This document shows, in pieces, positions 7,701 through 50,980 of a stretch of 55,798 bases of DNA. The DNA comes from Candidatus Goldiibacteriota bacterium HGW-Goldbacteria-1 (GTDB taxonomy: Bacteria > Oederibacteriota > PGYV01), in assembly GCA_002839855.1 (NCBI GenBank), contig PGYV01000011.1, positions 1 to 55,798 of the forward strand. Reading direction: 5' to 3'. Below the pieces are notes generated by a model that was not told the DNA's origin, ran no database searches, and was given only the letters and a program-made list of their open reading frames with translations. A program made the position numbers and the translations under genes. The first letter of the stretch is position 1, and each line of letters opens with the position of its first letter.

Positions 7701-8158
7701 TGTTTATGCTTGACCCGTCTTATGTATTGCCTGCGGGTGGGCAGATAACGCTTGATTATACCGTTACAATTGACAGGATAACGGCTGATTATTTTGAAAG
7801 CAGTGTTGTTGTTAAATGGAACGATTCTGTGTTTACAAACGCGCAGAATCCGGATAAGGCTGAATCCGATGTTGTGGTTTACCCTTTAATCGCGCCTGTG
7901 GTATATCCTAACCCTGTAAGCATAGCAAAAGCAAAAGATGGGAAAATGAAAGTGGCAAACATGGTGCCGCAGTCCGTTTTTGTAATTTATACAATTACCG
8001 GTGAACACGTAATTTCGTTAAAAGCGGAAAATACCAAAATATACTGGGATATGAAGAACGGGAACGGGGCAAGGGTGTCGCCCGGAATTTATCTTTATAT
8101 AATAAAAAATAATTATTCAAAACAGCTTATAAAAGGGAAGATGTTCATACAGAATTAG
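4781..8158 (+). CDS. Giant Thr-alternating surface protein with CBM3-like head
   Basis: A secreted protein of 1125 residues starting at GTG 4781 behind GGGGAG. It has a signal peptide (1-29). Residues about 30-200 resemble a family 3 carbohydrate-binding module: NTGTTPVDITGLYVRAWFNG, then LQPGQNIRLNGAI and NDDYSGHG. CBM3 binds cellulose or chitin; whether this copy does is inference. Residues about 236-905 have threonine at nearly every second position ([14 protein letters not shown] pattern), with a 28-residue higher-order repeat; such linkers are likely extended and perhaps O-glycosylated. Residues 908-1030 are a DUF11-like sandwich. Residues 1036-1125 are a FlgD-like tail (VVYPNPVS, then WDMKNGNGARVSPGIYLY). 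The last 215 residues are shared with the paralog at 8742. Confidence 0.8.
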   Translation: MFKKSGIKARRVFLLATAFIAFFSAYASAGLNMQIAVSNNPATNDRMNIEIFIYNTGTTPVDITGLYVRAWFNGTFTPAASWYNRDLQNPNQSNVITVNSTTATIPTCTEAADRIANRYIQLNLSYGSQLQPGQNIRLNGAISGANPFDPVNDDYSGHGVLVKDDYKWFVLYDTLGVVQEETAPGVTDPDTGAEPCSIPTATPTNTWQSVTNVVWIENSLGTPFMTSVATVQIQPPTPTFTRTSTNSATPTRTNTQTVTYTPTRSSTMTVTASPTATVTFTATGTVTFTATATATRTSTVTATRTVTSTNTATPFNTLTSTATSTPTSTVTITATPSATVTVTRTSTATATTSITYTATPTVTFTATVTVTRTNTSTRTATPTATNTFFDTMTNTRTVTPTATITVTATATSTVTFTRTATDTNTNTSTPTDTNTATFTNTPTDTYTSTYTRTFTDTPTDTSTPTNTNTFTHTSTVPPSSTATNTFTQTFTRTYTNTPTETFTFTNTYTPTDTRTNTHTRTHTNTYTPTEIFTDTNTPTDTYTPTFTSTPSFTRTFTNTHTDTNTPTNTNTPTDTYTPTFTRTFTNTRTNTNTFTNTNTPTDTYTPTFTRTFTNTRTNTNTFTNTNTPTDTYTPTFTRTFTNTRTNTNTFTNTNTPTDTYTPTFTRTFTNTRTNTNTFTNTNTPTDTFTPTHTRTFTHTRTHTNTRTNTNTYTNTNTPTDTFTPTHTRTHTNTRTNTNTFTNTNTPTDTFTPTHTRTFTHTRTHTNTRTNTNTFTNTNTATDTFTPTHTRTHTNTRTYTNTPTDTGTPTFTRTFTNTRTHTNTRTQTNTPTVTNTFTHTYTRTHTRTFTNTRTFTNTRTFTFTATFTRTFTPTVTNTFTKTFTYTHTPTFTNTFTRTYTATPIPTPADLEVVLSVTGQNPRPGAEIKYRMEIINLTGSPAYNLQITAQLIDGISFKNTDFRTASAPVQTGNTVVFMLDPSYVLPAGGQITLDYTVTIDRITADYFESSVVVKWNDSVFTNAQNPDKAESDVVVYPLIAPVVYPNPVSIAKAKDGKMKVANMVPQSVFVIYTITGEHVISLKAENTKIYWDMKNGNGARVSPGIYLYIIKNNYSKQLIKGKMFIQN
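6493..6830 (+). repeat. 84-bp higher-order tandem repeat inside the Thr-rich region
   Basis: The block beginning CCCACTGACACATACACG recurs every 84 bases (for example near 6493 and 6577), encoding a 28-residue unit [17 protein letters not shown] plus [11 protein letters not shown]. About four near-identical copies occur here, with more degenerate copies downstream to about 7130. The copies differ mostly at third codon positions, which suggests recent amplification under protein-level constraint. Confidence 0.8.
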
Positions 8159-8741: not shown

Positions 8742-11700
8742 ATGAAATTTATGCTTAAAAGAGTTCTCCTGGCAGCCTTTTTTTATATTGTCACATTTAA
8801 CCTTTATTCCGCCACAATGACAAGTGCCACATTATGCGTAAACGGCGATGACATAACTGATGTGTGGATAAACGGTTATTCTATGGGCTCGTTTAATTAT
8901 GTGAACTGGGATTCAACAGACCCTGTACCCTGCGTTAGTGTACCTATTGCCTATCTTAATGCCACCGGTGGAAACGTAATTGCCGCTCTAAACAGGGATA
9001 CAGGTATGGGTGAAATTTATACGTCGTGGGTTCTTGATGTAACTTACAGCGACGGACAGCACGCATACATGTCATCTGATGACGGGGTAAAATTAAACAC
9101 TTCCACTTATGACTGCTCTTCTCCGCCGGCAGCAGACTGGTATCAGCCCACATATAATCATTCTTCGTGGGGCGATGCCGTTGTTGTAACAGGCACCACC
9201 TGGGGCAAACAGATGTTTGACCCGGGAACGGGTTTAAGGGTAAAAATGCGTTCTTATTCCGCCACAGCTTCAAATTCGGGACATCCATGCCTGTATATGA
9301 GGCAGGGATTCACCCTTGTGCCGGAAGACCCTCCGCCTCCGCCAAACTTTACGCTTGTAAAATCCATGAGCAAAGTATCTGACATTACAACGGAAGATGT
9401 GACGGTTACTTTTCAGATATGCAATACAGGCGGATTCACGGAAGACCCGGTTGTAATCCACGATATTGCGGATATGGTGGTGCCTTCTACCGCTACCCTT
9501 GATTTTCAATACAAGTATACTGGAGCTCAAAATACAAGTACGGGGCCTAATTTTATAGAGTCACCCGCAGATGGTGATTTTGTTGATATTTCTTTTCCAA
9601 TGGGGTTTGAAGGAAATAAATGTTTAAACGTAAGTTTTGTCATAGTTGATTATTCCTGGCAGATTACTCAGGCGGAGGATAATTGCGCGACGGCTAATAA
9701 TTACGGCCGCGTGGTATGGAACGGCGGCAGCAGAAATTCCAACACCGTTGAATTTGACAAAAGGTGCTGGACAAACACGCCCACATTCACGCGGACATTT
9801 ACACCCACCGCGACTTTCACCAGAACTTTTACGCACACGTATACGCTGACGCCTACAAGGACGCCCACGTTTACCCAGACGCCCACAAGGACATATACAA
9901 ACACAAATTCGCCTACATATACCAGGACATATACCGCCACCTTTACAAACACAAATACAAATACCGCGACTTTTACAAGGACGCCCACGTATACAAATTC
10001 GCCCACTAATACCTTTACAAACACCCACAGCCCTACAAACACAAGGACAAATACTTATACTTTCACGCGGACTTTTACCAATACTTTTACAAACACGCAT
10101 ACTTTTACAAATACACCCACAAACACCTTTACACACACGCAGACGTTTACCCGTACTTATACAAATACTTTCACAGAGACTTATACTGTTGTGCCGTCAG
10201 CCACGGCCACCAATACTTTTACCAGCACGAATACGAGGACTTATACATACACTCATACAAACACCAACACCCCGACAAGTACAAATACGTTTACCGACAC
10301 ATATACGGCAGTGCCTTCTGCCACCGCCACTAATACGTTCACAAATACCAATACAAGGACTTATACATACACCCACACCAATACCAACACCCCCACAAAT
10401 ACAAATACGTTTACGGAAACATATACGGTAGTGCCTTCTGCCACCGTCACCAATACGTTCACAAATACAAATACAAGAACCAATACAAACACGCCCACAA
10501 ACACAAATACATTTACCCATACCAATACGGTTCCGCCGTCTTCAACTGTTACAAATACATTTACAAACACAAATACCAGGACTTATACAAATACCCCGAC
10601 CGAAACCTTTACTTTTACAAATACCTATACATCCACTGATACGCGCACACATACTCCCACAAGGACAAATACAAATACATACACGGCAACGACAATTTTT
10701 ACAAATACATTCACCCATACCAACACCTTTACACCCACTTTTACAAGGACGTTTACAAATACAAGAACCAACACCAACACGCCGACCGACACAAATACGC
10801 CCACGGACACATACACGCCGACATTTACAAGGACGTTTACAAATACAAGGACAAATACCAACACGCCGACTGACACAAATACGCCTACAAACACATACAC
10901 AGCGACATTCACGCGGACATTTACAAATACCCGCACATATACCAACACGCCCACTGACACAAATACGCCCACAAATACATACACCCCGACGTACACACGG
11001 ACATTTACGAATACCCGCACTCATACAAACACGCCGACTGTCACAAACACTTTCACACAGACATACACCCGTACTTTTACAAGGACGTTTACAAACACGC
11101 GGACGCATACTTTTACCCGCACTCACACAAATACAGCCACAAATACCAATACATTTACCCCCACAGTAACAAACACTTTCACGAAAACTTTCACAAATAC
11201 GGTCACTTACACATTTACCAACACGTTTACCCGCACGCATACGCACACGCCTATTCCCACACCGGCGGATCTTGAAGTTAAGCTGTCAGTTACGGGAGAA
11301 AACCCGCTGGTGGGTTCAGAGATAAAGTACAGGATGGTTGTAACAAACAAGTCCGGGTCGCCGGCGTATAATATAACCATTAATGACGTACTGCCGCCGG
11401 GGACAAGTTTCAGGGGGACAGATTTCAGGACGGCGTCTGACCCCGTGGTATCGGGCGGAACTGTCACTTTTGTCCTTGACCCGTCCTATGTGCTTGAAGC
11501 GGGAAAACAGCTTGTGCTTGAATTCAGCCTGACGCTGGATGCAATACATTCGGATTCCATAGATAACAGTGTTACGGTAAACTGGAATGATTCTGTATAT
11601 AAGGCGGGGCAGAATCCAAAAACTGCCACATCAGAAATAGCAAAATACCCGCTTAGAGAGCCTATTGTCTTCCCCAATCCTTTCAGCAAATCGGCGGCAA

Positions 11701-11924
11701 AAGACGGGGTGCTTAAAGTGGCCAACATGGTGCCGCAGTCTGTGTTTGTGGTTTACACCATTACAGGCGAACATGTAAGGTCAATTAAAGCCGAAAGCAC
11801 ATTCATAACCTGGGACGTAAAAAACGGCAACGGGGCTGATGTCTCGGCGGGAATTTATATGTATATGATAAGAAACAACTATTCAAAACAGCTGATTGTC
11901 GGGAAAATATTTATTCAGAATTAA
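8742..11924 (+). CDS. Giant Thr-alternating surface protein, paralog with jelly-roll head
   Basis: A secreted protein of 1060 residues; the ATG at 8742 follows GAGGT. It has a signal peptide (about 1-24). Residues 25-190 look like a galactose-binding-type beta-sandwich ([31 protein letters not shown]) as found in carbohydrate-binding regions; the ligand is unknown. Residues 200-335 are a DUF11-like unit after a proline run. Residues 345-840 are Thr-alternating. Residues 843-965 are a DUF11-like sandwich and 970-1060 a FlgD-like tail ([26 protein letters not shown]). The tail module and parts of the linker match the gene at 4781, so the pair arose by duplication with exchange of head domains. 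Confidence 0.8.
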
Positions 11925-38709: not shown

Positions 38710-41700
38710 TTGCAAAATATCTCGAAAAGATTATTTTTTCTGGTATCTCTATTTCTGGTTTTAGCTGTTCTTCCCGCCAATATTAAAGCCGCATACGTTA
38801 TTTCATCGCTTGATTTTACTGTTTCTCCCACTGCCGGAAATTATGGCAGGATTGGCAGTGATGTAAAATTTCAAATGATGGTCATAGACACATTGCAGAC
38901 CTATGCGTCATTATCCGCTGTTTCCGTGACTGCGACGGATATCTATGTGTATTCGGCAGCATTGCCTGTTTCCGGGCCCACGGTTGCCAATCCTTTTTAT
39001 GTTTATGACGGAACGCGCACGTGGAGGGTGACAGGTTATTCCCCAAACCCCAATAATTCATCGCAGAATACCTTAAGGTTAAACGCCGGCAATCTTCAGG
39101 CGGGAAATTTATTAAATGATTATATGTCTCTGGAGTATGCTGTTTTTACTGCGGCAACAGGCATGCCGGTAACCGGCGGCAACGCGTCGGTGGATATCGC
39201 GCAGTCTGCCGTGGGTATAGCTTTATTTGACGACGGCAACCTTGCGCTTCATAATGACGCTGTTCTTAATAACGGGATTTATAACTGCATATTTAACGTC
39301 ACAGAAGCTTATAAATTTGACCTGTCCGGAGCAAATGTTAAAGGGCATTTTAATAAGAACTTTATAAAAGCGGGAAATGACCCTTTTACCGCGCCAAGAA
39401 ATATATGGCTGGATTCCATAAGGCCTTCTATCAGCATTCCTGACGCGCACCCGAACCCGTATAATCCAAACACCGGGCTGTTTCAGCTGTTTTATTACCT
39501 TAATGAAAAGAGCACCATAAACTTTAATATTTATTATAACAGCGTTACCATTAAGACAATGGTTCTTGACGGGACTTCCGGATATAACGCGCCAATATTA
39601 TGGGACGGTAAAAGCAATACCGGTACAATACAGGCCGACGGGGATTTTTCATATTCTTTCCTGCTGACTGATTACGCCGGCAATACCACTATTACCAAAG
39701 CCGCGGCATTAAAGATTACAACTGTGGAGCTTGAAACCACAATTTATTCCATTGATACTCATTACTCTAATCCGGCCGAACCGCAGATAGCGGCAATTAT
39801 TGTGGTTAATTACGAACTTACAAATGCAACGCCTGCCAATTTACAGAACCTTGGATTTGATTATCCGGAAATTGCCGGTGTTAATCACGATTACAGAAAT
39901 TACCCTTATGTGTATCTTGATACCCGCCTTTATGACAGCGCCGGGAATATTTTGGCAAAGTACGGGACTGATAATAATCCATTGGTAGATAATGATCCTA
40001 TATATACCTTTATAGATTTTCCAAATTATGGGGATGGCCTTCCCATGTCCGGCTTTAATTTTACCACTCTTCCAGGCAATCCCTGCGGGTATCCTGAAGC
40101 TCCCATATACTCAAGGGGTGATGATCAAAAAGGAAATGACTGGGATTCTGTGTTTGCAAACCCCTTAACTTATCAGGGCGGCGGCAAATTCACGGGTACC
40201 ACAAGCGTTTTTTTAGTTGATGATATTTCGGATCCCGGAATATATTCATTTAGCGCAAAAAGCGTCCTTGTAGGAAAATCCCTGGGAGTAAAACCGGATT
40301 CTGAAATTGTAAACGAGATTGTAACGTGCAGTGATGGTATGGGCGGTACAATAAATGCCTCGTACCGGTATTATCAGTACCATGCTTACCCAAGTTATTT
40401 TTATGATGAAACAGTCGGCCATATTTCTGATGAAAGAGGTTATGGCCTTGCGTCTTTACAGGATACTGCAAGTTTCATGGTGGAAGCTGACGAGACAGTG
40501 CCTTCGGCGGATAATATAGCGCCTGTAATAATAACTTCTTCGGAGTATCCTTCACAGAATGAAATTGTTCAGCCTTTTGCAATTACAGCGCAAAACCCGG
40601 TAAGAATAATGCTGACAGACGCCGGCGTGGGCGCCGGGCCTGAAAACCTTTCAACTTTTATTCTGTACAACCCTTATGGGACGCGCGTAAGCGGAAAAGT
40701 GACGTGGAGCGGTTCCAATGCCGACGGTTCATGGACCATAAAGTATGAACCGGACAGCCCTATAACAATGGGCGGCCTGTATTCTTTTATGGTAATACCT
40801 GTGGATGCGGCAAATAATATCGGAGAGGCAAAAACTTTCAGCTTTACGGTTGCGGATACATCAATACCATACGTGCCAAATAACGGAGCCACCGTGCAGT
40901 CTTCAACCGGTTCCACCCTGGCGTTGTCAGATTCCACTTCAACACAGGTTAATTTTGTGGTGTCTAAAATAAGCGCGGTTATACTGTCCGGCGGGACGTC
41001 TTTGGTTGACTGGAATTCTTCCACAATAGTGGTAAAGGATTCAAATGGCAACAATGTTCAGGGTTCTGTATCGCACGTTTCGGGGACAAACATATTGTCG
41101 TTTACCCCGTCGGTCAGTCTGGCGGACGGCAATTACACCGTTAATATTACCGCGATTTCGGAGAACGATTACCCCGGCGCATATTCCTATAATTTTTATG
41201 TTACAACAGCAAACGTTACGTATGTAAATCTGACAGGTTCTGGTGAAACAAGCGCCACATGTATGAGAATAACAGATCTTGTACAGCCAAGCGCGGGAAT
41301 ATTAGACCAGGGAAGCACGGCGGTTTCTCCCACAGCCATTACGGTATCCAACGTAACGGCGCCTTCGCTTCCGTCATCAAACACCGTTCTTGGAAGCCCC
41401 ATAAGTTTTGCTTTAAATTCACCTCATCAGCTGCCGCTTACCATAAATCAGCAGCTGGCAAATGTAGTTGTAAGGCTGCATTTTGGAACCCCTGAAATAA
41501 ATACGCTGACTGCCATTGGCATGGATGAAACAAATATCACAGTATGGAGATGGGACGGCAATGTCTGGACGCAGGTGGTAAATCCCGGGAATGCCATTAC
41601 CAACGGCACAGACCATTATTTTGAATTTTCTGTTACGTCAATTACGGCAAATAACGTATTTGCCCTTATGTATGTAACTCCCGCGGTTCCTCTGGCTACT

Positions 41701-42039
41701 TTTAAATTTTCAAGCACAAAAGGTTTTAACCCCGTAAAGGAAAGTTCAAAGATATATTATACGGATTCCATTACCGGGGTGGAAAATATTAAGGTGGCAA
41801 TATACGGCTTAAATGGAGCCCTTGTAAGGAAAAGCGAATACAAAAACTCATCTGATACCGCTTTGTTTACGGGAAATGACCTTAATCCCTACGGCGCTGA
41901 AGTGAAATATTATTATGCGTGGGACGGCAAGAATGATTCCGGCGCGTATGTGAAAAACGGCGTATACGTAATAAAGATGCAGATTGAAAAAACATCGGGA
42001 AAAGAGAATATTTCAAGGGTTATAGCTGTAATAAAATAA
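38710..42039 (+). CDS. Secreted multidomain protein with FlgD-like tail
   Basis: An 1109-residue exported protein read from TTG 38710 behind GGAGG. Signal peptide at 1-28. An internal FlgD-like domain lies at about 245-335 (HPNPYNPNTGLFQLFYYLNE; WDGKSNTGTIQADGDFSYSF). Residues about 610-840 hold bacterial Ig-like (Big_5/SbsA-type) repeats such as IPYVPNNGATVQ and LSFTPSVSLADGNYTV. A C-terminal FlgD-like domain spans about 1010-1109 (IYGLNGALVRKSEY; WDGKNDSGAYVKNGVYVIKM). Such tails occur on proteins exported to the surface. It is followed 22 bases later by a PorV/PorQ-type barrel gene. Confidence 0.82.
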   Translation: MQNISKRLFFLVSLFLVLAVLPANIKAAYVISSLDFTVSPTAGNYGRIGSDVKFQMMVIDTLQTYASLSAVSVTATDIYVYSAALPVSGPTVANPFYVYDGTRTWRVTGYSPNPNNSSQNTLRLNAGNLQAGNLLNDYMSLEYAVFTAATGMPVTGGNASVDIAQSAVGIALFDDGNLALHNDAVLNNGIYNCIFNVTEAYKFDLSGANVKGHFNKNFIKAGNDPFTAPRNIWLDSIRPSISIPDAHPNPYNPNTGLFQLFYYLNEKSTINFNIYYNSVTIKTMVLDGTSGYNAPILWDGKSNTGTIQADGDFSYSFLLTDYAGNTTITKAAALKITTVELETTIYSIDTHYSNPAEPQIAAIIVVNYELTNATPANLQNLGFDYPEIAGVNHDYRNYPYVYLDTRLYDSAGNILAKYGTDNNPLVDNDPIYTFIDFPNYGDGLPMSGFNFTTLPGNPCGYPEAPIYSRGDDQKGNDWDSVFANPLTYQGGGKFTGTTSVFLVDDISDPGIYSFSAKSVLVGKSLGVKPDSEIVNEIVTCSDGMGGTINASYRYYQYHAYPSYFYDETVGHISDERGYGLASLQDTASFMVEADETVPSADNIAPVIITSSEYPSQNEIVQPFAITAQNPVRIMLTDAGVGAGPENLSTFILYNPYGTRVSGKVTWSGSNADGSWTIKYEPDSPITMGGLYSFMVIPVDAANNIGEAKTFSFTVADTSIPYVPNNGATVQSSTGSTLALSDSTSTQVNFVVSKISAVILSGGTSLVDWNSSTIVVKDSNGNNVQGSVSHVSGTNILSFTPSVSLADGNYTVNITAISENDYPGAYSYNFYVTTANVTYVNLTGSGETSATCMRITDLVQPSAGILDQGSTAVSPTAITVSNVTAPSLPSSNTVLGSPISFALNSPHQLPLTINQQLANVVVRLHFGTPEINTLTAIGMDETNITVWRWDGNVWTQVVNPGNAITNGTDHYFEFSVTSITANNVFALMYVTPAVPLATFKFSSTKGFNPVKESSKIYYTDSITGVENIKVAIYGLNGALVRKSEYKNSSDTALFTGNDLNPYGAEVKYYYAWDGKNDSGAYVKNGVYVIKMQIEKTSGKENISRVIAVIK

Positions 42040-42060
42040 CCGGGGAAGAGGATAAAACAG

Positions 42061-43062
42061 ATGAAAAAGAAGATGATATTTTTTGTATGTGGTATATCCA
42101 TATTGTTATCCGGCGGTGTTTTATCCGCGGCGCAGTCAGATTTTCAGGGCGGTACGTTTCTTGATTCGCAGGCCGGGACAAGGCCCACAGGGCTTGCCGG
42201 CGCTTATACCGCGATAGCATCAGACGGCAATGCTTCGTGGTGGAATCCCGCGGCGCTTGCTATGCTGGACAAGAAAAAAAGCATGAGCTTAACTTATGTG
42301 CCGTCAATGCTGGGCATAGGCGAAGGCAATATTTCAAACTTTTTTGTCGCTTACGGGCAGGGCGACACCGGCGGTTACGGCGCGCTGGGGGCAAGCATCA
42401 GCTATACTTCGGTTAAGTTTGGCGCGGAATTCACCGGTGATACGGAACTTGACTGGTCGGAATTAACAGCGCTTTTATCGTGGGGGATGCAGGTAAACCA
42501 GTATTTTGGAATGATTAAATATAAGTACCCCAAGGTTTCTGTGGGCGTTAACCTTAAGTATCTTGGAAATAACAGCGATTTGAAAGTGGACGGTAAAACA
42601 GTAAGCGCGTCAGGTTTTTCAGCGGACGCTTCCGTACATGCCGCTTTTAAAGAGAATCTTGCGGTCGCATTTACCGCTAAAGACATAATTTCACAGCTTA
42701 CATGGAGCAGCGGACTGGCTGAAAAAGTGCCGTACTCTTTAAGGCTGGGGGCATATTACGGAATAACCGCGGATTTTTTACTTGCAGGCGAGATAAAAGC
42801 TGATGAGACTTCCAAAGGTTCTCCGGAAATAAGCGCTTATTCGGGCGCTGTTGAATATGGTTTTCTTCTTGACCGCTCAATGCAGGTACAGAAAGTGGCA
42901 TTAAGGGGCGGTATTACGGTAGACCCCAACAATGACTGCTACATAATTGCCGCCGGAGCAAGCGTTGAAATGGAAACTTTTTCTGTTGATTACGCTTACC
43001 AGCACTATCTGAACGTGATGCTTGAAAACACGCACAGGTTCGGCGTAAGCATGACCTTTTAA
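42061..43062 (+). CDS. PorV/PorQ-family outer-membrane protein
   Basis: A 333-residue outer-membrane barrel with signal peptide (about 1-22). Near the mature N-terminus it has the family signature FLDSQAGTRPTGLAGAYTAI followed by ASWWNPAALA, as in PorV/PorQ and UPF0164 proteins. It ends in VSMTF. In Bacteroidetes, PorV carries cargo from the type IX translocon to the surface attachment machinery. Here the gene is next to a FlgD-tailed protein, which fits that role, but no SprA/PorU-type translocon gene is in the window. The gap to the next gene is 22 bases. Confidence 0.87.
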   Translation: MKKKMIFFVCGISILLSGGVLSAAQSDFQGGTFLDSQAGTRPTGLAGAYTAIASDGNASWWNPAALAMLDKKKSMSLTYVPSMLGIGEGNISNFFVAYGQGDTGGYGALGASISYTSVKFGAEFTGDTELDWSELTALLSWGMQVNQYFGMIKYKYPKVSVGVNLKYLGNNSDLKVDGKTVSASGFSADASVHAAFKENLAVAFTAKDIISQLTWSSGLAEKVPYSLRLGAYYGITADFLLAGEIKADETSKGSPEISAYSGAVEYGFLLDRSMQVQKVALRGGITVDPNNDCYIIAAGASVEMETFSVDYAYQHYLNVMLENTHRFGVSMTF

Positions 43063-43084
43063 ATAAAATAAGGGAGCTTTACTG

Positions 43085-45355
43085 ATGAACCTAAGGGATT
43101 TGCTCCATTTAATGATACAAAAACGGTCGTCTGACCTTCATCTGAAAGAAGGCAGGCCGCCAATAATGAGGGTTGACGGCAGGCTTACCCCCCTTGAAAT
43201 GGAAATATTATCAAGCGCGGATATGCGCGAAATAATACAGACCATGACAGATGAAAAAACCCGTAAAAAATTTGAAGAGACCAATGAAATGGATCTGGCA
43301 TATAATCTTGAAGGGGTGGCCAGGTTCAGGGCAAACGCTTTCAGGCAGATGGGGAAACTGGAAGTTGTAATGAGGGCCATACCTATAAAAATTCCCACAC
43401 TTGAAGAATTAAACATGCCGCCTGTTTTAAAAGAAATTGCCCTTTATCCAAGGGGGCTTGTACTTGTAACCGGAACAACAGGAAGCGGAAAATCTACATC
43501 TCTTGCCGCTATGATAAATGCCATTAATGAAACTTATTACCATCATATTGTCACCATAGAAGACCCCATTGAATTTGTGCATACAGACAAGCGCAGCAGT
43601 ATTACCCAGCGTGAAGTGGGCCTTGATACAGATTCGTTTGGAAACGCGCTGCGTTATGTTTTAAGGCAGGACCCGGATGTAATATTAATAGGCGAGATGA
43701 GGGACATGGTAACTGTGGGCACAGCCATTTCCGCGGCAGAGACCGGGCATATGGTTTTTTCCACGCTGCATACGATGGATACAATACAGACAATAAACAG
43801 GGTACTTGATTTTTTTCCCAAGGAACAGCAGGTGCAGGTAAGGTCGCAGCTTGCCGGCGCTTTAAAAGCTGTCATTTCTTTAAGGCTTGTCACAAAAGCG
43901 GACGGCGTGGGGCGCGTTCCGGCGGCAGAAGTAATGATAGTCACCCCGACAATTAAAGGGCTTATTGAAGAAGGCAGGCTTGGGCTTATAAAAGACATGA
44001 TTAAAGACGGCGAAAGAGACGGGCTTCAGACATTTGACCAGTCTCTTATCAGGCTGTATAAGCAGGGTTTGATAACAATAGAAGAGGCAAAGAAGAACGC
44101 CACTTCGCCGCAGGAACTGGACCTTGCCATGAAAGGTATTACTTCAAGCAAATCGTCCGCACAGTCTATACTTGACACCATGATGAAAGAGCAGGGAAGC
44201 AAAGAACAGACATCAGAATTAAAGCACGGAAAGCAGCTTTTAGATTCCGGAAAATTTGGTGAAGCTCATTTGGTATTTGAAAAACTGCTTCTAAAATTTC
44301 CTGATAATAAGGAAGCGGCAGAAAATTTAAAGGCGGCAAAAGCCGGATTAAATTCGGAACAGCATCAGGAAAATGTAAGGACCATAATTAATGAAGGCAT
44401 GCTTATTTATAAAAAGGGAAATATCAGAGGCGCGATTGTAAAATGGCAGGAAGGGCTTGGCCTTGACCCGGGCAATGTGCAGCTTAAGTCGTATATTAAA
44501 AGCGCCGAAGAAAACATAGGCCGTGCCGCGCAGATACCGGGAATTCTTGAGCAGGGCGTGGAAATTTATAAAACCGGCAACATAGAAGCGGCCGTCCTAA
44601 AATGGCAGGAAGTGTTTAAACTTGACCAGAATAATATGCAGGCAAAAACCTACATAGCGGGTGCGCGGCATAAGGCCGCCGAACTTAAACTTAAGCGTGA
44701 AATAGAAGCGTTATATAAGCGCGGGATGGAAGAAAATGACAAAGGCAACCCTATTGAGGGTATGCTTTATCTGAAGCGGGGACTTGACCTGAAACCCGAT
44801 TCAAAAGAAATAGCGGAAAATTATGAAAAAATAAAATCAGCGCTTTTAGGAGAAAAATTCGGCAATGATGTGGAATCGGAAGTGGCAGCTGAGGCTTTTA
44901 AATTATGTATTGAATGCCTGTCGTCGGAAGATTACCTTGGTGCGATTAAAGAGATAAAAAAAGTCATTGAAAAAAGGCCTCTTGATAAAAAGGCCAAGGA
45001 CTATCATGAAAAAATAAAAAACTGTTTAAAGTTAAGGCTTGAAGAACTGCACGAAAATGTGGAAGAAGCCTATGGTGCAAGGGAACTGGCAGGCGCCATG
45101 TCTTTATCGCGAAAAATACTTAAAATCGACCCAAGCAGTGAGTTTGCCCTTAAGTACATAAAAGATTTAACACCGGTAATAGAAGATGAAATAAAGAAGA
45201 TTTATTCAGAGGCAATGGAACTTTATGGAAAGGGTTCCTTGAAGGAATCAAAAGAAAAACTGGAAGCTATTCTGCTGCTTGATGCGGAAAATCATACCGC
45301 TAAAAAGCGGCTTGACGAGATAAATCAAAGGCTTTCCGCCATCGGCGGAGTGTGA
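43085..45355 (+). CDS. pilT: PilT-type retraction ATPase fused to a TPR domain
   Basis: A 756-residue protein. Residues 1-360 are a complete PilT, the ATPase that retracts type IV pili: RSSDLHLKEGRPPIMRVDGRL, Walker A GTTGSGKST at 130-138, Asp box TIEDPIEF, Walker B VILIGEMRD near 199-207 and His box STLHTMDTIQ. A normal PilT ends near here. About 390 further residues form about eight TPR units (GKQLLDSGKFGEAHLVFEKL; KGNIRGAIVKWQEGLGLDPG; YKTGNIEAAVLKWQEVFKLD). The frame is continuous, so this is a real fusion. The TPR part may recruit partners such as regulators. The next gene starts 13 bases later. Confidence 0.93.
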   Translation: MNLRDLLHLMIQKRSSDLHLKEGRPPIMRVDGRLTPLEMEILSSADMREIIQTMTDEKTRKKFEETNEMDLAYNLEGVARFRANAFRQMGKLEVVMRAIPIKIPTLEELNMPPVLKEIALYPRGLVLVTGTTGSGKSTSLAAMINAINETYYHHIVTIEDPIEFVHTDKRSSITQREVGLDTDSFGNALRYVLRQDPDVILIGEMRDMVTVGTAISAAETGHMVFSTLHTMDTIQTINRVLDFFPKEQQVQVRSQLAGALKAVISLRLVTKADGVGRVPAAEVMIVTPTIKGLIEEGRLGLIKDMIKDGERDGLQTFDQSLIRLYKQGLITIEEAKKNATSPQELDLAMKGITSSKSSAQSILDTMMKEQGSKEQTSELKHGKQLLDSGKFGEAHLVFEKLLLKFPDNKEAAENLKAAKAGLNSEQHQENVRTIINEGMLIYKKGNIRGAIVKWQEGLGLDPGNVQLKSYIKSAEENIGRAAQIPGILEQGVEIYKTGNIEAAVLKWQEVFKLDQNNMQAKTYIAGARHKAAELKLKREIEALYKRGMEENDKGNPIEGMLYLKRGLDLKPDSKEIAENYEKIKSALLGEKFGNDVESEVAAEAFKLCIECLSSEDYLGAIKEIKKVIEKRPLDKKAKDYHEKIKNCLKLRLEELHENVEEAYGARELAGAMSLSRKILKIDPSSEFALKYIKDLTPVIEDEIKKIYSEAMELYGKGSLKESKEKLEAILLLDAENHTAKKRLDEINQRLSAIGGV

Positions 45356-45368
45356 CAGTAATTAAATA

Positions 45369-46028
45369 ATGAAAAACAGAATGATTGCTTTGCCACTTAC
45401 GGTAATAACCATAATCCTGTGCTTTCCTGTCACACTTGCGTTTACGGATATCCTTAAAAATCTTACGATAAATTCACGCATTGAACTGGGATTCTTTATA
45501 GGTTTTGCGGTGTACCTAATTATTCATATTGTGTTATATAAACCTGTTTTTATGCACGTTATGGCGCATGAATTAACTCATATTTTCTGGGCTTTTCTTT
45601 TTGGCGGAAAGGCAAAAAAACTTGAAGTGTCAGCCAGCGGGGGAAGGGTGCTTATTAACAGGACAAATTTTGTAATTACGCTGGCGCCGTATTTTTTTCC
45701 GCTTTATACATTCATATTTCTGGCGGTCTATATTATCGCTAAAGAACAGTACCTGCCATATATTGCTTTTTTAATAGGGGCCAGCCTGTCTTTTCATATA
45801 GCCCTTACGCTTTATTCAATGAAGACAGCACAGAGTGATTTTCACGAAGACAGCAATATATTCTTTTCGCTGTCTTTTGTGTACCTGATGAATGTACTTG
45901 TGATTGCAATGATATTTTCACTTTTATCCGAAAAGGTAAATTATATGGACTTTTTAAAGGATGTCCCGGGAAAATTTATCTATATGTATAATAAAACAAA
46001 ACACTTTTTCACTGCTTTTGCGGGCTGA
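45369..46028 (+). CDS. HExxH integral membrane protein (M50-like)
   Basis: A 219-residue protein with about six membrane helices. The second helix region ends with MAHELTHIFWAFLFGG, giving the zinc-protease motif H67-E68-x-x-H71 next to a membrane segment, as in M50 peptidases. A second conserved Asp motif is less clear: NVLVIAMIF lacks the usual LDG, although a DFHEDSN segment is present. It may be a divergent site-2-type protease or an inactive relative. The ribosome-binding site is weak, so expression may depend on read-through from pilT. It ends nine bases from the convergent gene. Confidence 0.62.
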   Translation: MKNRMIALPLTVITIILCFPVTLAFTDILKNLTINSRIELGFFIGFAVYLIIHIVLYKPVFMHVMAHELTHIFWAFLFGGKAKKLEVSASGGRVLINRTNFVITLAPYFFPLYTFIFLAVYIIAKEQYLPYIAFLIGASLSFHIALTLYSMKTAQSDFHEDSNIFFSLSFVYLMNVLVIAMIFSLLSEKVNYMDFLKDVPGKFIYMYNKTKHFFTAFAG

Positions 46029-46037
46029 TTTTTAAAA

Positions 46038-47735
46038 TTACCAGCCCAGCTCCTGCTGTTGTACCTTTTTAAATTCTTCCGTTATTTTCTTCATATTTGT
46101 CTTGGCATCCGCATTATCGGGGTCAAGTTCAAGCAGCTGCTGCCATGTTTTCATTGATTCCTGAAATTCCCCTTTTGTGTACTGGAGCACTGCTTTATTG
46201 TAAAGCGATGAAATGGTTTTTTCGCGTTCTGATTTCTGCTTTTCGGCTTTAACTTCAACTGTGCGGATTTTATCCTGCGCACTTTTTATGTAATTATATA
46301 CCTGGCGCTGAAGCGGGGAGGCCTTTATGACCTTATCCCACTGTTCAATGGCAGCCGCGTAATTACCGGCGGTATACTGATCAAGGCCGGCGTCAAAATT
46401 TTTCTGTATAACAACCCGGTTCTTCTGTTCCTGAACAATATTTTCCTGGCCAAGTTTTTTTACGATTTCCTGTGTGTCGCGGAATTTTTTCCAGGCAATA
46501 CTGTTGGAAGGGTCTATATCCAGGATGCTTTTAAGAGATACCATGGCGTCAATATAAAGTTTGTCTTCAATAAGTTTATCAGCCTCGACAAATAAAGATG
46601 ACAGTTGTTTTCTTTTTGATAAAAGCGTAATTTCATCTTTTTTAGCCGTAAAAAATGCATTGGAAGGCTCCCATGCCAGTGCTTTATCGGCTGCGGCAGC
46701 GGCTGCGTCATAGTCCTGTGAATATAACGCTTTTTCTATATCAAGTTTCAAGGAATCAAGCGTTTCGGTTTTTATTTTTGTCACAAGTTCTGACCTTAAT
46801 TTTTCTTTTTGGTCTTTAATTCTGTTTTCGGCCGCCCTGATATCGTCGCCAAAGCCGTAAGACAGGGCGAATCGGTGTGAAAAATCATAGGGCATTTTTA
46901 CATAAGCATAATCCGCCGTGAATCCGTATAATGTAATTGAAGCACCCGCTGAAAATCCTTCTGAATTTAAGCCGCCTGAAACCGTGCCAATTCCATATGC
47001 TGAATAGGATGCGCCTGCTGACCACTGCATATCAGGGCTGAATTCTTCTTTTGAAAGGCCGGCACTAAGCTGAAGCATACCCTGTATATCATTTATCACC
47101 GGTATTTCATAGCCCAGAGAAGCGCGGTATTGTAAACTTAGAGTATCAGACGATGAAGAATTATATGAAAAAACAGGTTTAATCAGGTTAACAATGCCTG
47201 CGGCAAGGCGTATATCATACGGCAGTTTAATAAGAGCTCCCATATCCATTCCATAGCCTGACGAAGATATGCCGTAAAAATCATGATTTAAATACTTTAT
47301 AGTTATGCCGGCGCTGTAATTATGAAACATGGTATACGCGTATGATAACAATACCGATTTATAAGAATCGCTGAATTCACCTGTTACTATGTTATTAATG
47401 TCGCGTTCTTCTATTATGCCGGCATCAAGAAGAAGCCCGGATACAGAAACAGTGCCGGCTTCTAATATGGGCATCGCGTAAGAAGCCGCGCTGATGTAAG
47501 AACCTTCAAACAAGTTATAAAATGCAAGAGAGACTGACTGTTTTTCCAGCAGCGCAAGGCCGGCAGGATTAACAAAAGAAGAAAAAGCTTCTTTGGAAAA
47601 AGCCGCACCGCTTCCGGAAAGGGAAGAGTTTTTAGCGCTTATGTCATTAAAGAATGACAGGGTTCCGGAAAAAAGCGCTGCGGGTAATATGGTAATTATT
47701 ATTAACGCAGGAATAATAAGTATTTTTGTTTTCAT
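46038..47735 (-). CDS. PorV/PorQ-like outer-membrane barrel fused to TPR repeats
   Basis: A 565-residue exported protein starting behind GGGGAG, with signal peptide (about 1-23). Residues 25-300 are a PorV/PorQ-like barrel (SFFNDISAKNSSLSGSGAAF; SSFVNPAGLALLEKQSVSLA; ending HRFALSYGFGDD). Residues 305-560 are helical, with a coiled-coil start and about five TPR units (EKALYSQDYDAAAAAADKAL; DAGLDQYTAGNYAAAIEQWDKV; KAVLQYTKGEFQESMKTWQQL). The TPR tail must lie in the periplasm or outside the cell and could bind exported clients. It shares barrel family and TPR habit with the plus-strand neighbours. Confidence 0.82.
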   Translation of the reverse strand: MKTKILIIPALIIITILPAALFSGTLSFFNDISAKNSSLSGSGAAFSKEAFSSFVNPAGLALLEKQSVSLAFYNLFEGSYISAASYAMPILEAGTVSVSGLLLDAGIIEERDINNIVTGEFSDSYKSVLLSYAYTMFHNYSAGITIKYLNHDFYGISSSGYGMDMGALIKLPYDIRLAAGIVNLIKPVFSYNSSSSDTLSLQYRASLGYEIPVINDIQGMLQLSAGLSKEEFSPDMQWSAGASYSAYGIGTVSGGLNSEGFSAGASITLYGFTADYAYVKMPYDFSHRFALSYGFGDDIRAAENRIKDQKEKLRSELVTKIKTETLDSLKLDIEKALYSQDYDAAAAAADKALAWEPSNAFFTAKKDEITLLSKRKQLSSLFVEADKLIEDKLYIDAMVSLKSILDIDPSNSIAWKKFRDTQEIVKKLGQENIVQEQKNRVVIQKNFDAGLDQYTAGNYAAAIEQWDKVIKASPLQRQVYNYIKSAQDKIRTVEVKAEKQKSEREKTISSLYNKAVLQYTKGEFQESMKTWQQLLELDPDNADAKTNMKKITEEFKKVQQQELGW

Positions 47736-47748
47736 TTTTGACTCCCCG

Positions 47749-50133
47749 TTATTTTATTAACGTTATTTTTTTAGTTTCGGTTTTTGTTTTTCCGGCAGAT
47801 ACTGCTTCTATTTTGGCAAGATATGTCCCTGCCAGGACAGTCCTGCCGTTATTGTCTTTGCCGTCCCAGAAGTCATTTTCACGGGCGCCGGCAGGCAGTA
47901 TGTTATTTTCCATTATTGTCCTTACCATGCGTCCGGCAAGGTCATATATTTTTATTGTAACTTCGGAAGCAGTGTCCAGATAATATGACAGCGCTGCTTT
48001 TGACCCGTACTTGAACGGGTTTGGATATGTAGAGAAAGATAGTTTTTCAGAAGCGCCGGCAATTGCACCTGTACCGGAACTCATCGGGAATGTCTGCCCT
48101 AATGCAGCTGATACAGCCACCGGTTTCAGCGGGTCCAGATACTGATAAACCCCGATTGCTGCGGCGGAATTAAGTACCAGCCGGACATTGCCGGCTGCCG
48201 CGTTGTCTTTGATATCGCCTGTAACAGTGATTATTGTAGAAGCGGTGGATGTTAAAGGAATAGGCGATGAAAAAGGTATGTATATCGTGTCTGATGAAAA
48301 CGCTGATATCACGGCCGAATCGGAAACTGCCGGCGAAAGAATTGAGACTTTAATTGAGGAGAAAAATGCGTCCGCGTTGACCGACGCGCCGTCAATATTG
48401 CGGGCGGTAAGGGTTATACCGTATGCCATTATTGTATTGCCTTCTCCGAATGAAAGAGGGGATGAAAGAGATATCTGCATTATTGCAACATCTGCCTGTC
48501 CTGAATAAAGTGTCTTTGGCATTAAAGGCGTAACGCCGGCTTTAAGCGAACTTGAAAGCAGGGCTGAAGGCGAAGTGTACACGGATGAAGCTGATGTGAC
48601 AGAAGCCGGCGAGAATGAATTAATGTCGCGCGCAAGTATATCCGAAGACGGCACAATTACAATTCTGAAATCATCTGCGGTTGTTGAAGAACTTATATTG
48701 GCCCTGACTGTAACTGTGGCTGATGATGCGGAAGCAATTCCAACTGAATTTATAAGGGGTATGTTTATTATGCTGCCGGAAGATTCAATTGTGCTGTCTT
48801 TAATGCCGTAAATTATTGTTCCGGAAAGGTCTGTTACCGATATCTTTGAAAAAAGTGATGAGGGGATGATAGGCGTTCCGGAATTGTCGGTAACCTGAAG
48901 TTTCAGGTTGTAAACCTGGCCGGAAGCTGTAAGTGAATTGCCCGGGTTGTTAAGAATCATTTTTACAAGGGGCACATTGACCTGCCCTTCGTTTATGGTC
49001 AAAGGGATTATATCCGTAAATGATGCGCTGATTTCGCTGCAGTTTTTTTGAAGAGTGGTGAAGTTTGAATAGATAGGGAAACCCGTTGTGTCAACGGCTG
49101 AAGCTGCAACTGTGACGGTTTTTATAGTATAAAAATCATAAGCCAAAAAGGAAGAAGGTTCGTTAAGTGAAATGATAAAGTTAGTTCCCGCGGTTATTGT
49201 TGATGAAACCGCGCTTATTACGACGTTTGCCGTAATAGTTGTTTCTGCGGGTATGTTAAGAAGGGAAAGCGGTATTTCAATTGGGTTTGTGGAAGATGGG
49301 ATTGACGCGCCTGACACGGTGCCGTAAACTGTCCCTGAATTTTTGTCCTGAAGTTTTATTGACTGTATAAGCGCTGACGGGGCAAGTGTTACACCCAGCG
49401 GTGAAAAAGTCTGCACGGTTAAGGTAAGCCCTGCCGCCACTATAGGAGCGGAATTTGGCCCCGAAGCGTTATAGAATCTGAAGGAAAACGGGATAATATT
49501 TTCCTGGCCTGTTGAAATCGCGGGCTGCATTGTGCCGGCGTCGTGGGTTATTTCCAGCAGGTCCGCGGGTGTGGTCTGAGTGATAAGCATTACAGGGGGC
49601 GATGAAGGCAGGTCCAAAATATCCGCCGTTCCCGAGTTAAAGGAAATATTTTCACCCTGAAATTCAACTGTGCCCTGGCCGGGTGATCCGGAAATATCAA
49701 CTGTAACCCATAATCCGGAATTGTTTGATACCACAAAATTAAAATTATTATACCACCAGTTATTATTGCCTGAAGTCTGCGTGAAATCGGAAGGAAGCGT
49801 GCCTACAAGCACCGCTGTTGCAGGGTCAAATTCCGGCGCGTCAACAGGCATATACCATAACTTAACGCTGTTTGGCGCAATTGAATCCGGTTCCACTGCA
49901 GAACCTATGTACCAGCTGTCTTTGTAATTCTGCACTGCAAAATGTGTAAGTGTGTCGCCTTGCGCATCGGCGTTTATTTTAAGGTGGAAAACCGGATTGT
50001 CAGTACTTGTGGCCTGAAGGTACTGGCCGGCATAGCCGTAATTCTGCACAGTAACAGAAGTTACAGATGAATAGATAAGGAAAGGAAATGACAGAATAAA
50101 AATTAAGGATAATAATCGGTGTGTTGTTTTCAC
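47749..50133 (-). CDS. Secreted beta-sandwich protein with FlgD-like tail
   Basis: A 794-residue exported protein read from GTG 50133 behind GGGAGG. Signal peptide at 1-22. Four or so tandem sandwich repeats of about 150 residues follow, each with threonine/serine-rich strands and recurrent phrases such as PLTINEGQVNVPLVKMILNN and SGQADVAIMQISLSSPLSF. The C-terminus is a FlgD-like domain: FSTYPNPFKYGSKAALSYYL, IKIYDLAGRMVRTI, WDGKDNNGRTVLAGTYLAKI. It lies 13 bases upstream of the barrel-TPR gene in one operon, mirroring the pair at 38710-43062. Confidence 0.82.
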   Translation of the reverse strand: MKTTHRLLSLIFILSFPFLIYSSVTSVTVQNYGYAGQYLQATSTDNPVFHLKINADAQGDTLTHFAVQNYKDSWYIGSAVEPDSIAPNSVKLWYMPVDAPEFDPATAVLVGTLPSDFTQTSGNNNWWYNNFNFVVSNNSGLWVTVDISGSPGQGTVEFQGENISFNSGTADILDLPSSPPVMLITQTTPADLLEITHDAGTMQPAISTGQENIIPFSFRFYNASGPNSAPIVAAGLTLTVQTFSPLGVTLAPSALIQSIKLQDKNSGTVYGTVSGASIPSSTNPIEIPLSLLNIPAETTITANVVISAVSSTITAGTNFIISLNEPSSFLAYDFYTIKTVTVAASAVDTTGFPIYSNFTTLQKNCSEISASFTDIIPLTINEGQVNVPLVKMILNNPGNSLTASGQVYNLKLQVTDNSGTPIIPSSLFSKISVTDLSGTIIYGIKDSTIESSGSIINIPLINSVGIASASSATVTVRANISSSTTADDFRIVIVPSSDILARDINSFSPASVTSASSVYTSPSALLSSSLKAGVTPLMPKTLYSGQADVAIMQISLSSPLSFGEGNTIMAYGITLTARNIDGASVNADAFFSSIKVSILSPAVSDSAVISAFSSDTIYIPFSSPIPLTSTASTIITVTGDIKDNAAAGNVRLVLNSAAAIGVYQYLDPLKPVAVSAALGQTFPMSSGTGAIAGASEKLSFSTYPNPFKYGSKAALSYYLDTASEVTIKIYDLAGRMVRTIMENNILPAGARENDFWDGKDNNGRTVLAGTYLAKIEAVSAGKTKTETKKITLIK

Positions 50134-50345: not shown

Positions 50346-50357
50346 TCAAGTACTTGA
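50346..50357. promoter_or_regulatory. Palindrome overlapping the regulator promoter, candidate operator
   Basis: TCAAGTACTTGA is a perfect 12-bp palindrome that covers four bases of the -35 element at 50354-50359. Binding there would block RNA polymerase, so autorepression by the gene just downstream is plausible. Confidence 0.5.
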
Positions 50358-50383
50358 CAATTGGCATGCTAAAAAAGTATAAT
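50354..50383 (+). promoter_or_regulatory. Consensus sigma70-type promoter of the MerR-like gene
   Basis: TTGACA (50354-50359), 18 bases, TATAAT (50378-50383). Both hexamers are perfect. The start codon is 37 bases further on. Confidence 0.82.
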
Positions 50384-50419
50384 TATAATGTATATATTAT
50401 AAGGAGGATGTTATTAATT

Positions 50420-50677
50420 ATGGAAGATACAGTTATGCCCGCGGTTAAGTTGTATAAAAGAATTTATTCTATTAATGAGGCCGCAGAGGTTCTAAATGTA
50501 CACCAACAGACATTAAGAAATTGGGAGCGTCATCAGCTGATACTTCCAATGAGGGCTGCGCAAAGGCGTATTTATACGGAAAAAGATGTTTTTATATGCA
50601 GAAAAATTAAAGAGTTTTCAGACAAGGGTATTTGTTTAAAAAGAATAAAGGAATTATTAAAAAATATAATTATATAA
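50420..50677 (+). CDS. MerR-type helix-turn-helix regulator, short form
   Basis: An 85-residue protein from the ATG at 50420. Longer frames start inside the promoter, and an ATG at 50408 touches the AGGAGG. The sequence IYSINEAAEVLNVHQQTLRNWERHQLI is the MerR helix-turn-helix, followed by the wing RAAQRRIYTEKDV and IKEFSDKGICLKRIKELL. The dimerisation coiled coil and effector domain of full MerR proteins are missing, so it is a small excisionase- or HspR-like form. It is probably co-transcribed with the ComFB gene 15 bases on, and may bind the palindrome at 50346-50357. Confidence 0.85.
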   Translation: MEDTVMPAVKLYKRIYSINEAAEVLNVHQQTLRNWERHQLILPMRAAQRRIYTEKDVFICRKIKEFSDKGICLKRIKELLKNIII

Positions 50678-50692: not shown

Positions 50693-50980
50693 ATGCAGGC
50701 GGAAAAAGAAGGCTTTATACTCAAGAATTATATGGAAGACATCACCAGAAGAAATATTGAAGAACAGTTTGAGTCAAGGGAAGATATATGCAAGTGCGAC
50801 AGGTGTAAGATGGATATACTTGCGTATGCTTTAAATAACCTTCCTGCCAGATATGTAGTAACGGACAGGGGGCATATTTTTACCAAATTAAAGGAAATGG
50901 AAATGCAGTTTATGGCCGATGTGACAAGGGAAGTATATAAAGCTGTGGAATTTGTAAAGGCGCATCAAAGGCATCAATGA
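50693..50980 (+). CDS. ComFB-family protein
   Basis: A 95-residue cytosolic protein behind GGAGG. It matches the late-competence ComFB family: NYMEDITRRNI, then the cysteine cluster CKCDRCKMDILAYALNNLPARYVVT. The three cysteines could bind zinc. ComFB proteins are linked to competence, and members have been reported as cyclic-dinucleotide receptors acting on type IV pilus functions. A PilT-type gene lies 5 kb away, which makes a pilus or surface role reasonable here. The function in this organism is inferred. Confidence 0.82.
   Translation: MQAEKEGFILKNYMEDITRRNIEEQFESREDICKCDRCKMDILAYALNNLPARYVVTDRGHIFTKLKEMEMQFMADVTREVYKAVEFVKAHQRHQ

What the first reader, a model, noticed from the sequence alone, without database searches (positions are those of the whole stretch)
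38710..50133. Mirrored envelope cluster: FlgD-tailed protein and PorV-like barrel pairs on both sides of a PilT-TPR fusion
On the plus strand, a FlgD-tailed secreted protein is followed by a PorV/PorQ-family barrel. On the minus strand, a second FlgD-tailed protein is followed by a second PorV-like barrel. Between them sit a PilT-TPR fusion and an HExxH membrane protein. In type IX secretion, PorV shuttles tailed cargo. Two cargo-shuttle pairs beside a pilus motor suggest a dedicated export or surface-assembly module not described as a unit. The arrangement and domains are seen in the sequence; the joint function is inference.
Basis: partly seen in the sequence, partly recalled or inferred. 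Interest (0 to 1): 0.75.

Follow-up and report, generated by a model that had tools for sequence, protein, structure and literature searches.

The report
Conserved T9SS-type cargo–carrier operon with PilT
This stretch encodes two secreted surface proteins, each next to its own PorV-type outer-membrane carrier, around a pilus-motor-like ATPase and a membrane protease; it is one conserved example of a genome-wide type IX-like export scheme (about 29 carriers plus a SprA-type channel) in a bacterial lineage I could not name, so the pairs fit a known kind of system while the link to the ATPase is unusual and unexplained.

Summary
All six genes are present at the stated coordinates, and the FlgD1-PorV1-PilT/TPR-M50 run is a tight operon. 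Its order is conserved in all eight order-level relatives with a readable locus, across five families. The mirrored FlgD2/PorV-TPR pair is conserved in three families and missing in two. Both barrels are PorV-family by profile, and PorV of the SprA-PorV complex is found in the PDB by both. The FlgD2 tail folds as a seven-strand C-terminal Ig domain matching PorU, PorZ and FlgD.

The interpretation needs changing. This is not a stand-alone export module. The genome carries about 29 PorV barrels and 41 FlgD-type domain hits, tailed genes sit directly upstream of barrels far above chance, and a full-length SprA/Sov homologue lies elsewhere. No PorU-type peptidase was found; GldL/GldM gave no hit (no positive control). 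The two pairs are best read as dedicated cargo-carrier cassettes of a T9SS-like system, analogous to type B cargo with PorP/SprF. The PilT is a second, PilU-like ATPase with a TPR tail. That fusion is phylum-wide but sits beside the cargo/carrier pair only in this order. Its role, and the protease's, is inference.

The parts
38710..42039 (+). FlgD1: 1109-aa secreted protein with Big_13 domain and C-terminal FlgD_ig/CTD-like tail (predicted cargo 1)
   Evidence: home-made tail HMM hit at residues 1024-1109 with 0 residues after it; full-length orthologues in 9 order genomes only
42061..43062 (+). PorV1: PorV-family outer-membrane barrel, 333 aa (predicted carrier/anchor of FlgD1)
   Evidence: NF033709 87.9 bits, E 9e-25; profile A1 hits only PorV of PDB 6h3i, E 1.5e-6
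43085..45355 (+). PilT-TPR: PilT/PilU-family hexameric ATPase fused to about 390 aa of TPRs
   Evidence: TIGR01420 461 bits; Walker A and B invariant or nearly so across 11 homologues; PilT and PilU structures are top PDB hits; AIRNLIRE of the genome's canonical PilT replaced by TIKGLIEE
45369..46028 (+). M50B-like membrane protein with HELTH motif (candidate site-2-type protease)
   Evidence: PF13398 25.2 bits; HExxH, NF..LAPYFFP and Q.D invariant in 10 homologues; phylum-wide orthologues
46038..47735 (-). PorV-TPR: PorV-family barrel (about residues 25-295) fused to C-terminal TPRs predicted to be periplasmic
   Evidence: NF033709 75.7 bits; profile A2 hits PorV 6h3i E 1.1e-7 and TPR proteins; TPR part modelled as helices at moderate to good pLDDT, barrel part not modelled
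47749..50133 (-). FlgD2: 794-aa secreted protein with C-terminal FlgD/CTD-like tail (predicted cargo 2)
   Evidence: FlgD_ig 35.6 bits; PorU-model C-terminus 31.2 bits; TIGR04183 22.2 bits (cut-off 23); tail model has seven strands, pLDDT 79, best PDB TM-score to PorU (0.69)
47752..48081 (-). Predicted sorting tail of FlgD2 (last 110 aa), ending KKITLIK

Best explanation
The locus holds two cargo-carrier cassettes of a T9SS-like outer-membrane export system. FlgD1 and FlgD2 cross the inner membrane by Sec. Their C-terminal Ig-like tails are then recognised inside the SprA-type translocon (encoded elsewhere in the genome) by loops of the neighbouring PorV-family barrel. The barrel leaves SprA with the cargo bound and, since no PorU-like sortase was found, probably stays attached as its outer-membrane anchor. 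In the second cassette the carrier has a periplasmic TPR arm that could couple it to the translocon or cell wall. PilT-TPR is a PilU-like accessory pilus ATPase and M50 a membrane protease; both probably share a transcript with cassette 1 and most likely adjust pilus activity or processing alongside that surface protein, rather than powering secretion. Shown: gene content, order, homology, conservation, presence of SprA, genome-wide pairing. Inferred: secretion route, tail-barrel binding, anchoring, and any role of PilT-TPR and M50.
For: Synteny in 8/8 readable order relatives with mostly 0-70 nt spacing (one 183-nt gap). Barrels are PorV by profile and PDB search. The FlgD2 tail folds like PorU/PorZ/FlgD. 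In this genome 8 barrels have a tail within 500 nt upstream against 0.12 expected and a maximum of 2 in 5000 random placements; 11 of 29 with a local tail HMM. Tails sit at the extreme C-terminus and most end in a short hydrophobic-basic motif such as AVVK/AVIR. SprA homologue, TIGR04189 205.9 bits against a cut-off of 200. A tailed protein elsewhere in the window passes TIGR04183 at 24.3 bits against 23. Cognate cargo/carrier neighbours are experimentally established for type B cargo and PorP/SprF in F. johnsoniae (PMC12618676), and SprA-PorV-CTD structures exist (PMC10994853). The canonical T4P operon with its own PilT is elsewhere.
Against: No direct evidence of tail-barrel binding; both barrel matches lie slightly below the NCBIfam cut-off. 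FlgD-like Ig folds are also plain structural modules (FlgD hook cap, C5a peptidase), and sequence search of the tail finds FlgD first. No PorU peptidase and no GldL/GldM hit, so the machine is not a complete textbook T9SS as far as tested. At least 72 kb of the genome is withheld as N, and the GldL/M searches had no positive control. PilT is cytoplasmic, so any link to an outer-membrane carrier must be indirect. Only 11 of 29 barrels have a detected tailed neighbour.
Confidence: 0.62

Rival explanations
1. First reader's module: PilT-TPR directly powers or localises export or assembly of the two tailed proteins, so the six genes form one dedicated secretion or surface-assembly machine.
For: Tight operon with FlgD1-PorV1 conserved across the order; FlgD1 and PilT-TPR are present in the same 9 of 14 order genomes and both absent in the other 5, including one 97% complete genome; GldL/GldM motor not detected.
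Against: PilT-TPR exists in other families without the cargo/carrier neighbours; cassette 2 is missing in two families that keep PilT-TPR; no PilT was seen beside the other PorV pairs of the genome (the only T2SSE-family hits are listed); co-absence of linked genes in incomplete genomes is partly trivial; a cytoplasmic hexamer has no known route to an outer-membrane carrier.
Confidence: 0.15
2. The FlgD-type domains are ordinary Ig modules and the PorV-like barrels ordinary outer-membrane proteins (FadL-like channels); the neighbourhood reflects co-regulated envelope genes with no export link.
For: FlgD_ig also occurs away from barrels in this genome; tail sequence search finds FlgD first; a weak Toluene_X/FadL match on PorV1.
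Against: Strict C-terminal position of many tails, pairing with barrels far above chance, a SprA homologue over cut-off, and PorV found in the PDB by both barrel profiles.
Confidence: 0.13
3. The tailed proteins are components of the type IV pilus (tip or surface adhesins), with the barrels as their outer-membrane pores, and PilT-TPR/PilU retracts this pilus.
For: Operon with a PilT/PilU-family ATPase; the PorV-TPR TPRs match TPRs of pilus-associated proteins (Tgl, Amuc_1098); a MerR-ComFB pair lies just beyond FlgD2.
Against: No pilin, secretin or alignment genes in the block; the T4P operon is elsewhere; TPR matches are generic.
Confidence: 0.1

Closest known systems
T9SS type B cargo with cognate PorP/SprF shuttle (Flavobacterium johnsoniae, PMC12618676)
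   Same: Cargo with a C-terminal sorting domain and its own barrel carrier encoded directly downstream; many such pairs per genome.
   Different: Here the carriers are PorV-family, the tails FlgD/type A-like, one carrier has a TPR arm, and one pair is in an operon with PilT-TPR and M50.
SprA-PorV translocon with type A CTD cargo (PDB 6h3i; PMC10994853)
   Same: SprA/Sov homologue, PorV-family barrels and seven-strand C-terminal Ig tails are all present.
   Different: About 29 PorV-family barrels rather than a single type A carrier; no PorU peptidase found; GldL/GldM not detected (no positive control).
PilU/PilT retraction ATPases (TIGR01420; PDB 5fl3, 9n32)
   Same: Complete N-terminal and ATPase domains with Walker motifs; GLQTFDQ region resembles PilU (the PilU comparison is from memory).
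   Different: A C-terminal TPR region of about 390 aa, and location beside cargo/carrier genes instead of pilus genes.

Membership tests
Type IX secretion system | SprA/Sov outer-membrane translocon | tested here: met
   G000 C2 ORF of 2079 aa, TIGR04189 205.9 bits against cut-off 200; homologues in all 6 phylum genomes searched
Type IX secretion system | PorV-type carrier | tested here: met
   Family-level match just under the curated cut-off for the two window barrels, 17 paralogues over it; PDB PorV hits
Type IX secretion system | Cargo with C-terminal sorting domain (type A or B) | tested here: met
   FlgD2 tail 22.2 bits to TIGR04183 (cut-off 23), fold match to PorU/PorZ; the 1125-aa ORF in the same window passes at 24.3 bits
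Type IX secretion system | PorU sortase (C25-type peptidase) | tested here: not met
   No Peptidase_C25 match in G000, though the same search finds it in three other phylum genomes; caveat: at least 72 kb of the genome is withheld
Type IX secretion system | GldL/GldM (PorL/PorM) motor | tested here: inconclusive
   No hit in 7 genomes and no positive control rang
Type IX secretion system | GldK/GldN (PorK/PorN) ring; SprE/PorW, SkpA | not tested
PilT/PilU ATPase family | TIGR01420 over cut-off with intact Walker motifs | tested here: met
   461 bits against 319; Walker motifs conserved
PilT proper | AIRNLIRE motif | tested here: not met
   TIKGLIEE here; the genome's other PilT keeps AIRNLIRE
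M50B-like membrane protease | Family profile and HExxH with a third zinc ligand in a membrane protein | tested here: inconclusive
   PF13398 25.2 bits against 26; HELTH invariant; third ligand not established

The most novel reading that the evidence does not exclude
A branch of type IX secretion in a phylum where it has not been described, without PorU and perhaps without GldLM, in which each cargo keeps its own PorV-family carrier as a permanent surface anchor, and a PilT-family ATPase with a TPR arm is coupled to one such carrier.
Probability: 0.12. Interest if true: 0.85.

Novelty: new variant of a known kind. Interest (0 to 1): 0.5.

Why it matters
Papers read here place type IX secretion in Bacteroidota or the wider FCB group and describe PorV as the one carrier for type A cargo (PMC11285876, PMC12618676). 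This genome has a SprA homologue with about 29 PorV-family barrels, many paired with tailed proteins, and the PorV expansion spans all 45 genomes held for its phylum. That makes it a natural test of whether PorV carriers can be cargo-specific and serve as anchors when no PorU sortase is found. The order-conserved operon with a TPR-tailed PilU-like ATPase gives a specific, testable hint of crosstalk between pili and surface-protein display. The strength of the claim depends on naming the phylum, which could not be done here.

Tried and rejected
A giant 24,245-aa tailed ORF suggested is an artefact: 72,000 of the 80,000 bases fetched around it are withheld and read as N.

Naming the phylum failed: the only named relative found is 'bacterium isolate USDV_metabat.159', with no paper found and no rank information. 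A guess at Goldbacteria from the Thr-rich repeats and cellulases in a relative was not testable and is not claimed.

AlphaFold on PorV-TPR with two sequences failed for the barrel (mean pLDDT 49), so no fold search was made.

M50 homologues outside the order lie among housekeeping and signalling genes, and PilT-TPR outside the order lies in unrelated neighbourhoods; neither gave a functional clue. The SprA_N Pfam search missed the window genome's own SprA, which was found only through a relative's protein; this is a warning about the negative GldL/M results.
Full report
Observation. FlgD1, PorV1, PilT-TPR and the M50B-like gene are on the plus strand with gaps of 21, 22 and 13 nt. PorV-TPR and FlgD2 run the other way, from 47735 and 50133; PorV-TPR and M50 converge with 9 nt between their stops. 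Profiles support every label: FlgD_ig at both C-termini, PorV_fam on both barrels at 87.9 and 75.7 bits (cut-off 90, E 9e-25 and 5e-21), pilT_fam at 461 bits with TPRs after it, M50B at 25.2 bits (cut-off 26) with HELTH. Searching the PDB with alignments of orthologues, PorV1 finds one molecule only, PorV of the SprA-PorV complex 6h3i (E 1.5e-6). PorV-TPR finds the same PorV (E 1.1e-7) besides TPR proteins, many of them designed.

Conservation. Around the M50 orthologue, the order FlgD1-PorV1-PilT/TPR-M50 is kept in eight order-level relatives from families f1, f2, f3, f4 and f6. The mirrored PorV-TPR/FlgD2 pair is kept in f1, f4 and f6 and is missing in f2 and f3. A sixth family (f5, G006) has the M50 at a contig end, so its block cannot be read. 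FlgD1 and the full PilT-TPR fusion are found in the same nine of the 14 order genomes held (the window's own included) and in none of the other five; M50 follows except in G006. G010, 97% complete, lacks all three, which speaks for gain or loss as a unit; the other absences are in genomes 61-89% complete and prove little. Against a same-genus relative all six genes show dN/dS of 0.05-0.12.

Genome context. The genome (2.86 Mb, 18 contigs) has 41 FlgD_ig hits and about 29 PorV-family barrels. PorV_fam hits number 7-43 in each of 45 genomes of the phylum. Eight barrels have a tail within 500 nt upstream on the same strand, against a mean of 0.12 and a maximum of 2 in 5000 random placements. A tail HMM built from this genome finds a tailed gene directly upstream of 11 of 29 barrels. 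Most seed tails finish at, or within a few residues of, the protein's end, often as AVVK, AVIR or similar. At least four barrels carry a FlgD-type domain fused behind the barrel, and three examined carry an OmpA domain. So the two pairs in the window are examples of a genome-wide arrangement.

Machine. A SprA/Sov homologue of 2079 aa scores 205.9 bits to TIGR04189 (cut-off 200). Homologues are in all six phylum genomes tested, with three relatives at 212-229 bits. It is followed by a tailed gene and a mutL-like gene (identified by eye) in the window's genome and in relatives. No Peptidase_C25 (PorU type) was found in the window's genome, while three phylum members have one. GldM and GldL profiles found nothing in seven genomes, but no control rang, and the SprA_N Pfam model missed this genome's own SprA. 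At least 72 kb of the genome is withheld. I therefore call the system T9SS-like and do not file it as a complete T9SS.

Tail. The last 110 aa of FlgD2 were modelled at pLDDT 79 with seven strands. Foldseek against the PDB lists C5a peptidase, FlgD, PorU and PorZ at E about 1e-4; the highest TM-score among these is PorU (0.69 over 102 columns). Which part of PorU aligns was not printed, but the NCBIfam PorU model matches this same tail at its own C-terminus (998-1093 of 1095). By sequence the nearest PDB chains are FlgD. Another tailed protein in the window (4781-8158) passes TIGR04183 at 24.3 bits.

PilT-TPR and M50. The genome's canonical T4P operon (PilT, then PilC-, pilin-, PilM/N/O-like genes and a 775-aa secretin-like gene, read by eye from order and sequence) is on contig C3. 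The window's ATPase is therefore a second copy, 46% identical to that PilT over the PilT part, and it lacks the AIRNLIRE motif. Full-length or nearly full-length fusions occur in families f9, f11, f12 and f15, with partial hits at contig ends in f10 and f14, but in different neighbourhoods without cargo or carrier genes. M50 orthologues occur across the phylum beside other genes. Both genes are thus wider-spread than the arrangement seen here, which looks like a recruitment into a cargo/carrier operon in this order.

Mechanism proposed. By analogy with SprA-PorV-CTD structures (PMC10994853) and with type B cargo and its neighbouring PorP/SprF shuttle (PMC12618676), each tailed protein is taken through SprA by the barrel encoded next to it. 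With no PorU found, the tail may stay bound to the barrel as an anchor, as the title of PMC9143113 states for type B cargo on PorP-like proteins. The TPR arm of the second barrel may contact periplasmic partners. PilT-TPR and M50 are most simply accessory functions expressed with cassette 1. The secretion route, anchoring and accessory roles are inference.

Known or new. Cognate cargo/carrier pairing is known for type B cargo; SprA, PorV and tails are known parts. What differs is the use of many PorV-family carriers, the TPR-armed carrier, the order-conserved operon with PilT-TPR and M50, and the lineage. Papers read here restrict T9SS to Bacteroidota or FCB phyla (PMC11285876, PMC12618676, abstract of PMC11205867). 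The phylum of this genome could not be named, so I do not claim a first report outside FCB.

Noticed in passing
window 4781-8158 (+) and 8742-11924 (+): Two secreted proteins of about 1100 aa with long Thr-rich T-x-T repeats ([11 protein letters not shown]...), a DUF11 domain and C-terminal T9SS-type sorting tails (TIGR04183 24.3 bits on the first): further candidate cargo, possibly heavily glycosylated.
   Followed up: partly
window 50354-50677 and 50693-50980 (+): A MerR-type regulator and a ComFB protein lie just beyond FlgD2, ahead of a large Thr-repeat protein; this trio is conserved in relatives L075, L076, L077.
   Followed up: partly
L113: 7154-11766 (G000 contig C2): Two PorV-family barrels, one with an internal FlgD-type domain, sit directly upstream of flgF and further flagellar rod genes, suggesting a link between PorV-like barrels and the flagellum in this lineage.
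   Followed up: no
L108: 9075-18335 (G000 contig C5): A Tad-like pilus locus (648-aa ParA-like/T2SSE ATPase and small TadE-like proteins, read by eye) has a PorV-family barrel nearby.
   Followed up: no
G000 contig C1, within 220001-300000: 72 kb is withheld as N, producing a spurious 24,245-aa open frame.
   Followed up: yes
L074: 4008-8128: In relative G006 the M50 gene is followed by two GH9 cellulases, one with a Por_Secre_tail sorting domain over its cut-off.
   Followed up: no
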